Source of the DNA: Bryobacterales bacterium
Lineage (GTDB): Bacteria; Acidobacteriota; Terriglobia; Bryobacterales; Bryobacteraceae
Assembly: GCA_947446025.1 (NCBI GenBank)
Contig: CANFEY010000027.1
Coordinates: forward strand, 1 to 55,988
Reading direction: 5' to 3'
DNA: 55,988 bases
Position numbers and translations under genes: made by a program. The notes below the pieces were generated by a model. It was not told where the DNA came from and searched no databases. It saw only the letters and a program-made list of their open reading frames with translations. Below, piece after piece: positions 1 through 2,711 of this stretch. Within the stretch, counting starts at the first letter, position 1. Every line of letters begins with the position of its first letter.

Positions 1-15
1 AGTTTACAGGGGGGG

Positions 16-36
16 CAGGGGGGAGCATCCCCCCTG
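16..36. repeat. GC-rich hairpin, candidate DGR target-site cruciform
   Basis: The arms CAGGGGGG (16-23) and CCCCCCTG (29-36) are perfect 8-bp reverse complements around the 5-base loop AGCAT. The structure sits directly before the avd-like gene, at the left edge of the window. In the Bordetella phage DGR, a hairpin with a GC-rich 8-bp stem lies just after the variable repeat and is needed for efficient retrohoming. By analogy this could mark the 3' end of a target gene lying left of base 1. A simple intergenic terminator for that gene is the alternative. Confidence 0.55.
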
Positions 37-44
37 GGAAAAGT

Positions 45-410
45 TTGAGCACGACATCGGAACCGACAGTGGTTGTGCAGAAGGCCTACGACTGGACGCT
101 GTGGATACTTCCGAAAGTAGAGAAGTTCCCGAAGAGCTACCGGTTTTCGATCGGGCAGAGCTTGGTTACGGCGTCGATTGAACTTTTGATGAACCTGGTG
201 GATGCCACCTATCAGGTGCGTAACACTGGATCCTTGAGCGCGGCGGTCCGCGAAGTGAATCGTATCCGGTACCTGGTGCGGTTGGCGAAGGACTTGGGCA
301 TACTGAATCTGGCGGGCCACGAATTCGGTGCGAAGGCGATGGACGAAGTAGGGAGGATGACAGGAGGCTGGCTGAAAAGCACGCGGCAAAAAAATGAAGC
401 GGGCCAATAA
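45..410 (+). CDS. avd: Avd-like four-helix-bundle DGR accessory protein
   Basis: Encodes 121 residues from a TTG start at 45. The length and helical pattern (a start near VVVQKAYDWTLW, a basic helix REVNRIRYLVRL around residues 70-80) fit the accessory variability determinant / S23-like four-helix family. In DGRs this protein forms a pentameric basic barrel that binds the reverse transcriptase and template RNA. The gene overlaps the RT gene by 17 bp, so the two are probably translationally coupled. The family call rests on size, composition and position next to a DGR-type RT. A generic four-helix protein outside a DGR is the alternative, but the neighbouring template repeat makes that unlikely. 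Confidence 0.8.
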   Translation: MSTTSEPTVVVQKAYDWTLWILPKVEKFPKSYRFSIGQSLVTASIELLMNLVDATYQVRNTGSLSAAVREVNRIRYLVRLAKDLGILNLAGHEFGAKAMDEVGRMTGGWLKSTRQKNEAGQ

Positions 411-1545
411 TCTGTGGGAGAAGATTGTCAGTTGGGAGAACCTGATGGAAGCGGTTCGGGCAGCGGCTCGCGGAAAGCGCACGCGGCCGGACGTCGCGAG
501 GTTCCTGCATGAGACGGAAGCCAACGTATGTCAGCTGCAACGCGAATTGCAGGACGGGAGCTATCGGTCGGGCGGCTACCGAACGTTCTGGATTCACGAT
601 CCCAAGCCGCGTCAGATCTCGGCGGCCCCGTTTCGTGACCGGGTGGTGCATCACGCGCTGACGAGTGTGCTGGAGTCTGTCTTTGAGCCGCGGTTTACCG
701 ATCATTCCTTTGCGTCGCGTAAGGGGTTCGGACAACACAAAGCGCTCCAGTTAGCCCGCAATGCGTGCCAGCGCTATCGCTATGTACTCAAATGCGATAT
801 CCGGAAGTACTTTCCTTCGATCGATCATTCCATTTTGAAGGGGTTGATCGAGCGGGCGGTGAAGTGCAGGCGGACGCTGGAGTTGGTTGGCCGGATTATT
901 GACGGGTCCAATGAACAGGAAGAGGTGGTGGACTACTTTCCGGGGGACACGCTGTTTACGCGGTTTGAAAGAACCCGCGGCCTGCCGATTGGGAATCAGA
1001 CTTCTCAGTTCTTTGCGAACGTGTATCTGAATCCGCTGGACCACTTCGTGATGCGGGAGCTGCGGCCCGCCTTGTATCTCCAGTATGTCGACGATTTCGT
1101 TCTCTTCTGTGATGACAAGCAGGAGTTGCAGTTGATGGCACAGCGGATACGGGAGTTCTTGCAGAGTCTACGGTTGAGTCCCCATGAGCGCAAGTTTCAG
1201 ATTTACCGTTGCCGCGCTGGGGTGACGCTGTTGGGGTGGCGGATCTTGCCGACACAGATGAGGTTGGCGCGTGCGAATGCGATCCGGATGAGAAGGCGGG
1301 TCCGAACGATGGTTGCGCTCTACCATGCGGGGGCGATTGGATTCGACGAAGTGCGGGCGCGCACGAATGCGTGGTTGGGACACGCATCGTTCGGGGATAC
1401 GTGGCAATTGCGGCAGAATGTATTGGGACCGCTTATCCTGAATGCAGCGGAACATGGCCGAAATGCGCGGGGGCGGGTGGAACAACAATCCACGGAACGT
1501 CCGCGTCTCGAACCGCAACAGGAACGAGCCAACGAACCGGAATGA
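394..1545 (+). CDS. DGR-type reverse transcriptase
   Basis: Encodes 383 residues from ATG 394. The palm motifs are complete: the motif A aspartate is in DIRKYFPSID (D135), motif B reads IGNQTSQ (residues 199-205), and the catalytic box is YVDD (231-234). The IGNxxSQ form of motif B, in place of the QGxxxSP of group II intron and most retron enzymes, is characteristic of DGR reverse transcriptases. The family copies a template RNA with errors at adenines, and the product replaces a variable repeat in a target gene. Upstream is the overlapping avd-like gene. The last roughly 25 codons coincide with the template repeat read in another frame, so the RT tail (rich in R, E, Q) is probably dictated by template sequence rather than by RT function. 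No frameshift or missing catalytic residue is seen. Confidence 0.92.
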   Translation: MKRANNLWEKIVSWENLMEAVRAAARGKRTRPDVARFLHETEANVCQLQRELQDGSYRSGGYRTFWIHDPKPRQISAAPFRDRVVHHALTSVLESVFEPRFTDHSFASRKGFGQHKALQLARNACQRYRYVLKCDIRKYFPSIDHSILKGLIERAVKCRRTLELVGRIIDGSNEQEEVVDYFPGDTLFTRFERTRGLPIGNQTSQFFANVYLNPLDHFVMRELRPALYLQYVDDFVLFCDDKQELQLMAQRIREFLQSLRLSPHERKFQIYRCRAGVTLLGWRILPTQMRLARANAIRMRRRVRTMVALYHAGAIGFDEVRARTNAWLGHASFGDTWQLRQNVLGPLILNAAEHGRNARGRVEQQSTERPRLEPQQERANEPE

Positions 1546-1597
1546 CAACATCGGGTTTCGTTGTGCGGGGTATGGGGAGCGCGGACTCAGAAGTTGA
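1448..1597 (+). other. DGR template repeat (TR), outer limits approximate
   Basis: Read from 1448 in the frame one base off the RT frame, this stretch encodes GGGWNNNPRN followed by SNRNRNEPTNRNDNIGFR and ends at TGA 1595-1597. That is the C-terminal signature of C-type-lectin/FGE-fold DGR target proteins. Between 1481 and 1549 there are ten AAC or AAT codons, the codon class favoured by adenine-specific mutagenesis, and all are unmutated, as expected of a template and not a variable copy. There is no start codon or gene for this frame. The core runs about 1470-1570. The IMH-like 3' end cannot be fixed without the matching variable repeat. Bases 1598-1769 hold no recognisable gene; a GCGACCGTCAG match to the dispersed repeat lies near 1728-1738. 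Confidence 0.88.
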
Positions 1598-1775
1598 GGG
1601 CGCGGGCGGGAATTGGATTCTTCACGGAGATTCCGGGTGTGCCGACTCCACTTCCGGGCCATGGGTCCCGACACCGTATTCGACGGAGTCAAATAGCAAC
1701 ACGACCCGGGTTCGCCAGTAGCCTCCGTGCGACCGTCAGCCCGGGACCTTCAACTGCGATAGAATATGCGTGTCT

Positions 1776-2711
1776 ATGCGCTACACCCTACTTGTTCTCA
1801 CCACCGCGCTCGTGACCTTTGGACAGAGCGCCTACAAGGCTCCCCGTACGGTTTGGGGCACGCCGGATCTGCAAGGCTTCTACTTCAACCGGACCACCAC
1901 GCCGCTGGAGCGTCCGCAGAATTTGGGCGCCAAGGAATTCTACACAGCGGAAGAGTTGAAGGCGCTGCAAGCCGCTGCGAACCGGCCTGCGGCGGAGACT
2001 GTGCCGGGGACGGCGGCGGATGCGCACTACGACATGAGCCAGTTCGGCCTGGACGGCGCAAGCACGGGCATGACGGTGCATCCGCGCACGTCGTTGATCA
2101 TCGGGCCGACGGGACGCATCCCGGCGATGACCCCGGAGGCAACCAAGCGTACGGCGGAGGCACGCGCGGCGGCGGCTGGGCACGAGTTCGACGGGCCGGA
2201 AAGCCGCAGCTTGACCGAGCGCTGCATTTTGTGGAGCTTTGAGGGTCCGCCGTTGATGCCGGGTGGGTACAATCCTAATTTGCAGATTTTTCAGGGTGAG
2301 AAGGAAGTGGTGATCCGGCACGAGATGATGGGCGGGGCTCGGATTGTGCGGACGGATGGGAGTCCGCATCTGAATGCGGCGATCCGGCAATTCTACGGGG
2401 ACTCGATTGGACATTGGGAAGGCGAGACGTTGGTGGTGGATACGACGAACTTTACCGATCAGCCTCCGCTGGGGCGAGGGGCGACGCGGAATCTGCATGT
2501 GACCGAGCGGTTCACGCGCGTGGCGCAGGGGTCGATCAAGTACGAGTTCATGGTGTCGGACCCGTCTACTTGGGAGCAGTCGTGGTCGGGTGAATATTCG
2601 CTGGAGTCGATGAAGGGTCCTATCTACGAGTACGCCTGTCAGGAAGGCAACTACGGGATGCCGAACATCCTGAGCGGGCAGCGGGCGGCGGAGCGGGCTG
2701 CTGCGAAGTAG
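1776..2711 (+). CDS. Secreted protein of an acidobacterial paralogue family
   Basis: Encodes 311 residues from ATG 1776; an in-frame GTG lies two codons earlier. The N-terminus is a signal peptide ending near TFGQSA. Visible family motifs are WGTPDLQGFYF near the mature start, GHWEGETLVVDTTNF in the second half, and YEYACQEGNYG near the end. The same motif order recurs in the secreted protein at 20366-21079, so the two are paralogues. Families like this are numerous in Solibacter-type genomes, but I know of no assigned biochemical role. The gene stands alone, convergent with coxG, and is not obviously part of the DGR. Confidence 0.8.
   Translation: MRYTLLVLTTALVTFGQSAYKAPRTVWGTPDLQGFYFNRTTTPLERPQNLGAKEFYTAEELKALQAAANRPAAETVPGTAADAHYDMSQFGLDGASTGMTVHPRTSLIIGPTGRIPAMTPEATKRTAEARAAAAGHEFDGPESRSLTERCILWSFEGPPLMPGGYNPNLQIFQGEKEVVIRHEMMGGARIVRTDGSPHLNAAIRQFYGDSIGHWEGETLVVDTTNFTDQPPLGRGATRNLHVTERFTRVAQGSIKYEFMVSDPSTWEQSWSGEYSLESMKGPIYEYACQEGNYGMPNILSGQRAAERAAAK

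What the first reader, a model, noticed from the sequence alone, without database searches (positions are those of the whole stretch)
45..1597. Diversity-generating retroelement with avd, RT and an intact adenine-rich template repeat
The YVDD reverse transcriptase with an IGNxxSQ motif B, the overlapping avd-like gene, and a hidden frame encoding GGGWNNNPRN...SNRNRNEPTNRNDNIGFR with ten AAY codons together make a DGR. The hidden frame has the form of a lectin/FGE-fold target C-terminus but no gene of its own, as expected for a template. The target protein, and so the trait being diversified, is unknown.
Basis: partly seen in the sequence, partly recalled or inferred. Interest (0 to 1): 0.85.

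Follow-up and report, generated by a model that had tools for sequence, protein, structure and literature searches.

The report
Self-mutating sensor cassette in an acidobacterium
A bacterium carries a cassette that copies a template with errors at its A letters and pastes it into the tip of a likely immune-sensor protein; the kind of system is already known, but here its missing target gene is found and relatives show it at work.

Summary
Window 45-410 is avd, 394-1545 the reverse transcriptase (RT), 1464-1570 the template repeat (TR). The missing target lies at the end of contig C21 of the same genome: its 3' end matches the TR over 107 nt with 17 mismatches, all 17 at template adenines (chance 3.6e-13). 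C21 and the window contig C27 end in the same 20 nt, found nowhere else in the genome; joined there, TR-VR spacing is 1598 nt (1575-1601 in L036-L038), and a 9-bp hairpin (window 16-36), a known kind of DGR target-site element, falls 42 nt after the VR.

The target is an FGE (C-type-lectin fold) domain downstream of DUF4062-NACHT. Nine aligned relatives keep one frame there; here a frameshift plus a TGA split it, so the receptor is in two pieces, broken or mis-assembled. RT relatives occur in 45 of 237 genomes of the family. Two relatives share an identical TR and differ at 17 VR positions, all template adenines. Verdict: a new member of the known DGR / NACHT-FGE 'antigen sensor' kind; activity here and a defence role are inferred, not shown.

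The parts
1..20 (.). contig end shared with the end of contig C21 (probable join to the target gene)
   Evidence: The 20-mer occurs only at C21:1-20(-) and C27:1-20(+) in the genome, up to 2 mismatches allowed; the joined order looks colinear with relative L037
16..36 (+). GC-rich hairpin CAGGGGGGA-GCA-TCCCCCCTG, 42 nt after the variable repeat if the contigs join; probable DGR target-site hairpin/cruciform
   Evidence: DNA fold -10.7 kcal/mol, z -2.0, 6 of 200 shuffles fold as well; stems of at least 8 bp within 100 nt after 22 of 36 VRs against 108 of 3998 random windows
45..410 (+). avd, accessory variability determinant (TTG start, 121 aa)
   Evidence: bAvd 4.3e-17; DivGenRetAVD 1.8e-22, 0.4 bits under its cut-off
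394..1545 (+). DGR reverse transcriptase (383 aa frame; its 3' end runs into the TR)
   Evidence: RVT_1 2.2e-20; 8ub7 2.1e-52; YVDD, IGNQTSQ
1464..1570 (+). template repeat (TR), 107 nt, 27 A, ten AAY codons in the target's frame; its variable repeat is C21:48-154(-)
   Evidence: 84% identity, 17 of 17 mismatches at TR A, p 3.6e-13

Best explanation
A chromosomal DGR that rewrites the ligand-facing C-terminus of an NLR-like sensor. The order, read one way, is DUF4062-NACHT | FGE with VR (contig C21), hairpin, avd, RT, TR (contig C27). The TR RNA is copied by the RT with Avd, errors fall at template adenines, and the cDNA replaces the VR at the 3' end of the FGE gene; the hairpin just past the VR helps mark the site. 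Shown here: the parts, the order (given the join), and the A-only TR/VR differences. Inferred: ongoing activity, the hairpin's role (from BPP-1), and the idea that the FGE domain senses an invader and the NACHT part triggers a response. In this genome the NTPase and the FGE are separate reading frames, so the receptor is either two polypeptides, recently broken, or mis-assembled there.
For: 17 of 17 TR/VR mismatches at TR A (9 A>G, 6 A>T, 2 A>C). Only these two copies in the genome. Target FGE-sulfatase 8e-55; upstream frame DUF4062 5e-18 and NACHT 6.7e-9. VR-TR spacing 1598 nt if joined against 1575, 1601 and 1600 in L036, L037, L038. In relatives, 19 of 40 fetched loci have TR and VR in the same places, chosen by position and not by base, with 311 of 333 mismatches at TR A. 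L047 and L048: identical TR, 17 VR differences all at TR A, against 20 differences in the remaining 1892 nt of the gene. 19 of 20 VR-bearing frames of relatives that I scanned carry FGE, most with NACHT, TIR, trypsin, caspase, nSTAND1, EAD8 or other signalling domains. Hairpin enrichment.
Against: The target is split here (frameshift plus TGA), while 9 of 9 aligned relatives keep one frame through that point and 8 of 9 have no stop in the linker. No reads or second strain, so activity is unproven in this organism. The C21-C27 join is inferred, and both contigs end at the DGR. A fourth close relative, L070 (77% RT identity over a shortened RT match), has a spacing of 1091. L036, one of the nearest relatives, has no stem of 7 bp or more in the 150 nt after its VR. 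9 of 40 relative loci gave no A-biased pair, 21 of 40 no pair in the canonical places, and L027 has only 11 of 19 mismatches at A.
Confidence: 0.88

Rival explanations
1. The cassette is a relic: the target was broken by the frameshift and TGA, and DGR and receptor are on the way out.
For: Two lesions in the NTPase-FGE linker; L079 has its own stop in the same linker; the DGR is patchy: 2 of 23 genomes of the genus have any RT match, the other at 36% identity, and 1 of 23 the NTPase. The own FGE outside the VR is further from its relatives (61-68%) than they are from each other (69-83%).
Against: RT, avd, TR and the FGE frame are open. The 80 non-A positions of TR and VR are identical, so homing was recent. 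The own RT and NTPase also sit further out than their relatives do from each other (RT 75-78% against 77-85%; NTPase 67-71% against 71-79%; the sets of relatives differ), so the longer distance is not confined to the FGE.
Confidence: 0.33
2. The split is real and functional: the DGR now diversifies a free-standing FGE sensor that works with a separate NACHT protein.
For: The FGE frame keeps a GTG start just after the TGA; small free-standing FGE proteins beside avd/RT are annotated on cyanobacterial plasmids.
Against: The nine aligned relatives keep one frame at that point; no test of expression.
Confidence: 0.2
3. The split is a sequencing or assembly error near the end of C21 and the target is one protein, as in relatives.
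For: It lies about 0.9 kb from a contig end; relatives are fused.
Against: It needs two separate errors, a length change and a stop.
Confidence: 0.25
4. The hairpin at 16-36 is a transcription terminator or attenuator between target and avd-RT rather than a homing element.
For: In many relatives A-runs and T-runs follow the stem. Stems also follow 34 of 343 long frames in general and 6 of 27 TRs (150 nt).
Against: No T-run follows it here (GGAAAAGTTTGA), and the terminator scan did not call it. It also follows some VRs lying elsewhere than before avd (L046:2935, L068:378, L071:3145), though not others (L046:-4632, L068:-6511, L067:377). It resembles the BPP-1 element (PMC3240598, abstract and passages).
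Confidence: 0.25
5. Not a DGR: a group II intron-like or other RT with a chance repeat.
For: NCBIfam names group_II_RT_mat first, far below cut-off (140 against 300 bits).
Against: avd, 8ub7 match, A-only mismatches.
Confidence: 0.01

Closest known systems
BPP-1 DGR of Bordetella phage (mtd-avd-TR-brt)
   Same: RT (34% identity), TR to VR transfer at A, GC-rich hairpin after the VR (PMC3240598, abstract and passages)
   Different: TR lies after the RT and overlaps its 3' end, whereas the BPP-1 record shows TR just upstream of brt; hairpin 42 nt from the VR (4-34 in the phage set of PMC3240598) with loop GCA, not GRNA; not in a phage, target has an NTPase partner
DGR-diversified NACHT/STAND-CLec 'antigen sensors' of multicellular bacteria (Dore 2024, PMC10907252; abstract, passages, sections 6 and 12 seen)
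   Same: NACHT plus FGE/CLec target with DGR; several RT matches per genome in some relatives (5 in G003, 5 in G216; 6 in G019, some of them fragments)
   Different: Acidobacterial lineage (the word stem 'acidobacter' does not occur in that main text); DUF4062 N-terminus; target split here
Cyanobacterial plasmid DGRs (Anabaena, Acaryochloris, Fischerella, Nostoc)
   Same: RT 47-49% identical; avd and FGE proteins annotated nearby in three of the four (the Fischerella neighbours are named hypothetical)
   Different: Acaryochloris and Nostoc targets lie beside a MoxR/AAA ATPase and a protease; separate RT clade
Treponema TvpA (PDB 2y3c)
   Same: sequence match of the target's FGE domain, 6.3e-13; recalled as a DGR-diversified C-type-lectin fold
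   Different: recalled as a surface lipoprotein without NTPase

Membership tests
Diversity-generating retroelement | RT of DGR type | tested here: met
   8ub7 2.1e-52; IGNQTSQ and YVDD (the meaning of the motif is recalled); groups with cyanobacterial RTs next to avd, across a 100/100 branch from BPP-1 and two other phage RTs
Diversity-generating retroelement | Avd accessory gene | tested here: met
   bAvd 4.3e-17; DivGenRetAVD 0.4 bits under its cut-off; no solved-structure match at E 0.1
Diversity-generating retroelement | TR/VR pair differing at TR adenines | tested here: met
   17 of 17
Diversity-generating retroelement | VR at the 3' end of a C-type-lectin/FGE-type target gene | tested here: met
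   FGE-sulfatase 8e-55; VR ends 12 nt before the end of the frame, stop included
Diversity-generating retroelement | Hairpin/cruciform after the VR | tested here: met
   9-bp stem, 42 nt after VR; depends on the contig join; loop is not GRNA
Diversity-generating retroelement | Mutagenic homing observed | not testable with these tools
   No reads; comparative evidence only in relatives L047/L048
NACHT/STAND-CLec antigen sensor | NACHT/STAND NTPase next to a DGR-diversified CLec domain | tested here: met
   NACHT frame directly upstream of the FGE frame
NACHT/STAND-CLec antigen sensor | NTPase and CLec in one polypeptide | tested here: not met
   Frameshift plus TGA here; one frame in 9 of 9 relatives aligned, with a stop in one of them
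NACHT/STAND-CLec antigen sensor | Defence against phage | not testable with these tools
   needs bench work
Roux/Dore RT clade 5 | RT places inside clade 5 of the published tree | tested here: inconclusive
   The published reference set was not used; nearest named RTs in the plasmid collection are cyanobacterial
Catalytic formylglycine-generating enzyme | Active-site cysteines in the C-terminal part | tested here: not met
   The cysteines of the stretch YLCHDSYCNRYRVAAR in 6muj have no counterpart in the aligned own stretch GWYDIPRLVRVSVR; their catalytic role is recalled

The most novel reading that the evidence does not exclude
In this lineage the DGR has been uncoupled from the NLR-like receptor it served: it now diversifies a stand-alone FGE sensor that pairs with a separate DUF4062-NACHT protein. 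The wider family (acidobacterial, not known to me to be multicellular) holds a mix-and-match repertoire of DGR-diversified death-effector receptors, which would loosen the reported tie between such DGRs and multicellularity.
Probability: 0.15. Interest if true: 0.65.

Novelty: new member of a known kind. Interest (0 to 1): 0.42.

Why it matters
It turns a template-only finding into a complete cassette with its target, and shows that one acidobacterial family has many DGRs that rewrite NLR-like receptors. Dore 2024 (section 6) ties this broad lineage of DGRs to multicellular bacteria; a rich set in acidobacteria offers a test of that link. The L047/L048 pair is a ready natural experiment on DGR activity outside cultured models.

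Tried and rejected
An empty-site comparison in the genus gave no clean site: the gene at 1770-2708 belongs to a large paralogous family, and the best matches of the two flanks lie on different contigs in G192 and in G195. A multiple alignment of hairpins had no common stem register, so bases were tallied from the loop outward in a script; only perfect stems of at least 8 bp entered, so that is description, not a covariation test. The own rnpB gave no blastn hit in 48 relative loci. The RT, avd and NTPase were searched against solved structures: avd and NTPase gave no hit. Structure prediction was not run: by its description the tool does not take proteins of stretches fetched the way C21 was, and the Pfam match settles the fold.

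Literature: (DGR with DUF4062) found 0 papers; (DGR with Acidobacteria / Acidobacteriota) found 2 papers each, not opened; some searches were listings from which I opened some; one search matched 1,761 papers, 20 listed, too loose to tell. I therefore do not claim that acidobacterial DGRs are unpublished; subscription papers and preprints are not held. PMC10053308 was searched for five terms with no occurrence.

Considered and dropped: group II intron RT (far below cut-off); phage origin (151 phage records match, all under 60% identity; the ten listed are at most 37%); programmed frameshift joining NTPase and FGE (a TGA also stands in the FGE frame). On rechecking I raised the relic reading from 0.30 to 0.33, because the own FGE outside the VR is more diverged than I first wrote.

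Full report
What is there. The window is contig C27 of a 4.43-Mb, 120-contig genome. Its first 1.6 kb hold avd (45-410; bAvd 4.3e-17), an overlapping RT (394-1545; RVT_1 2.2e-20; best solved match 8ub7, 2.1e-52) and an A-rich stretch that reads GGGWNNNPRNVRVSNRNRNEPTNRNDNIGFRCAG in a frame other than the RT's.

The variable repeat. A search of the same genome found one near-copy of the template, C21:48-154 on the minus strand, 84% identical. Over 107 ungapped positions there are 17 mismatches and all are at template adenines (9 A>G, 6 A>T, 2 A>C); with 27 A in 107 positions this has a chance of 3.6e-13. The last 22 nt are identical, and beyond them the two sequences part. A degenerate 54-base pattern with its A positions free, up to 3 mismatches, finds only these two places. 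No codon of the template can become a stop through its A positions, and the number of reachable protein variants is about 4.4e14.

The join. C21 and C27 end in the same 20 nt, which occurs at these two ends only. Joined there, the VR-to-TR distance is 1598 nt, against 1575, 1601 and 1600 nt in L036, L037 and L038. L070, also close, has 1091; its RT match covers residues 100-356 only. By eye the sequence from VR end through hairpin to avd start follows that of L037. Both contigs fit the genus: a 404-nt stretch of C21 that holds rnpB is 93% identical in G192, and the protein at C27:4007-6349 is 86% identical in G195, though not found in G192 at that cut-off.

The organism. Two relative contigs have the same length as named records (G164:C49 and PLDF01000221.1, 55,874 bases, 'Bryobacterales bacterium palsa_243'; G069:C218 and CAJCIT010000218.1, 4,545 bases, 'Acidobacteriaceae bacterium BOG_genome_mining.201'), so I take the family to be acidobacterial, order Bryobacterales; this is an inference. 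One of the eight named NTPase relatives is an Acidimicrobiia record with a partial match (L081, residues 9-237), so the target type is not confined to that group.

The target. The VR forms the last residues of an FGE-sulfatase domain (L003:36-881 minus, 8e-55), preceded by a DUF4062-NACHT frame (L003:941-2977 minus; 5e-18 and 6.7e-9). The aligned VR lacks the cysteines of the matching stretch in a true formylglycine-generating enzyme (their role is recalled), so I read it as a binding domain rather than an enzyme. In nine relatives aligned over the linker, NTPase and FGE are in one frame; one of them, L079, has a stop there. Here a length change in the linker shifts the frame and a TGA follows that none of the nine has at that point. 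The receptor is therefore split or broken in this genome, or mis-assembled near the end of C21; I cannot decide which. All three own proteins sit further from relatives than these sit from each other, the FGE outside the VR most clearly (61-68% against 69-83%; NTPase 67-71% against 71-79%; RT 75-78% against 77-85%), so relaxed constraint on the FGE is not excluded.

The family. With the RT as query, 45 of 237 genomes of the family, own included, match at E up to 1e-20; this counts partial and distant hits down to 31% identity. In the genus 2 of 23 genomes match, the other (G174) at 36% identity, and the NTPase is found in 1 of 23, so the cassette is patchy. I fetched 40 of the 72 listed non-own matches. 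Of these 40 loci, 31 hold an A-biased repeat pair by a criterion that demands at least 80% A. Without a base criterion, in the 19 loci with TR and VR in the same positions as here, 311 of 333 mismatches fall at TR adenines, where A makes up 523 of 2029 positions. Two genomes (L047, L048) share the identical 115-nt TR and the same 668-aa target gene; the VRs differ at 17 positions, all at template A, while the other 1892 nt of the gene differ at 20. That is comparative evidence of homing in the family, though not in this organism.

Architectures. Of 20 VR-overlapping frames scanned from relatives, 19 have FGE-sulfatase (the twentieth was a 77-aa fragment). The rest of the protein varies: DUF4062-NACHT, NACHT alone, TIR, TIR-NACHT, trypsin-NACHT, metallophosphoesterase-NACHT, EAD8-NACHT, nSTAND1, caspase, a weak protein kinase match (30.9 bits against a cut-off of 31.7; 23.9 against 23.1 for a second model), or nothing recognised. 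L037 carries two targets for one TR, a DUF4062-NACHT-FGE and a TIR-FGE on the other strand. The variable domain stays of one type while its partner changes.

The hairpin. A 9-bp perfect stem lies at window 16-36 (z -2.0, 6 of 200 shuffles fold as well). Of 36 VRs (own plus 35 in relatives, chosen by at least 70% A mismatches), 22 have a stem of at least 8 bp within 100 nt downstream; the figures are 108 of 3998 random windows from the same loci and 34 of 343 stretches after frames of at least 300 aa, a set that includes targets themselves. Over 150 nt the count is 23 of 36, 1% in shuffles, and 6 of 27 after TRs. In the clade of this RT the nine stems start 42-70 nt after the VR (42-44 in own, L037, L038, L039, L070) and their sequence differs while pairing is kept, for example CCAGGGGGGA and CCAAGGGGGA; L036, in the same clade, has none. 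Guo 2011 (PMC3240598; abstract and passages seen) reports that such a hairpin is needed for BPP-1 homing. T-runs after the stem in many relatives leave a terminator role open.

Comparison with the known. DGR-diversified NACHT/STAND proteins with CLec sensors were described by Dore 2024 (PMC10907252; abstract, passages, sections 6 and 12) and FGE-linked conflict systems by Kaur 2020 (PMC7159879; passages). Roux 2021 (PMC8144416; passages) gives the RT clades. In the RT tree built here (50 rows) the family RTs and four cyanobacterial plasmid RTs lie across a 100/100 branch from BPP-1, BalMu-1, a Vibrio phage and Ideonella; BPP-1 is a long branch and the root is at the midpoint. The system is therefore a new member of a known kind. 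What is added is the target, the contig join, the acidobacterial family and its repertoire.

Limits. Activity here, the defence role and the fate of the split target are not shown. Results against the reading: 9 of 40 loci without an A-biased pair, L027 with 11 of 19, L070's shorter spacing, 14 of 36 VRs without a stem of 8 bp within 100 nt.

Noticed in passing
C21 (L003:3321-3710, minus strand): The RNase P RNA gene (Rfam RF00010, 259.8 bits) lies 343 nt upstream of the DUF4062-NACHT frame and reads the same way, so the cassette sits behind rnpB.
   Followed up: partly
window 1770-2708: The 313-aa protein beside the DGR has no Pfam match at 0.001 and 61 matches in its own genome at 1e-10, and 100 (the number scored) in genus mate G179: a greatly expanded family of unknown function.
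   Followed up: no
L037:4860-6026 (minus): A TIR-FGE protein with its own variable repeat (20 of 21 mismatches at TR A), served by the same TR as a DUF4062-NACHT-FGE target.
   Followed up: partly
L069: One template repeat with four variable repeats in small FGE-like frames within 12 kb.
   Followed up: no
L079: A stop codon of its own in the same NTPase-FGE linker that is broken in the window's genome.
   Followed up: no
L007/L036 and two other RT hits: RT matches in G214:C119, G021:C359 and G104:C160 contain one TAG inside the matched frame; not examined further.
   Followed up: no
L047 and L048: Natural experiment: identical TR, VRs differing at 17 positions all at template A, otherwise near-identical gene.
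   Followed up: yes
L070: A close relative whose RT match covers only residues 100-356 and whose VR-TR spacing is about 500 nt shorter than in its neighbours, as if avd-RT had lost a piece.
   Followed up: no
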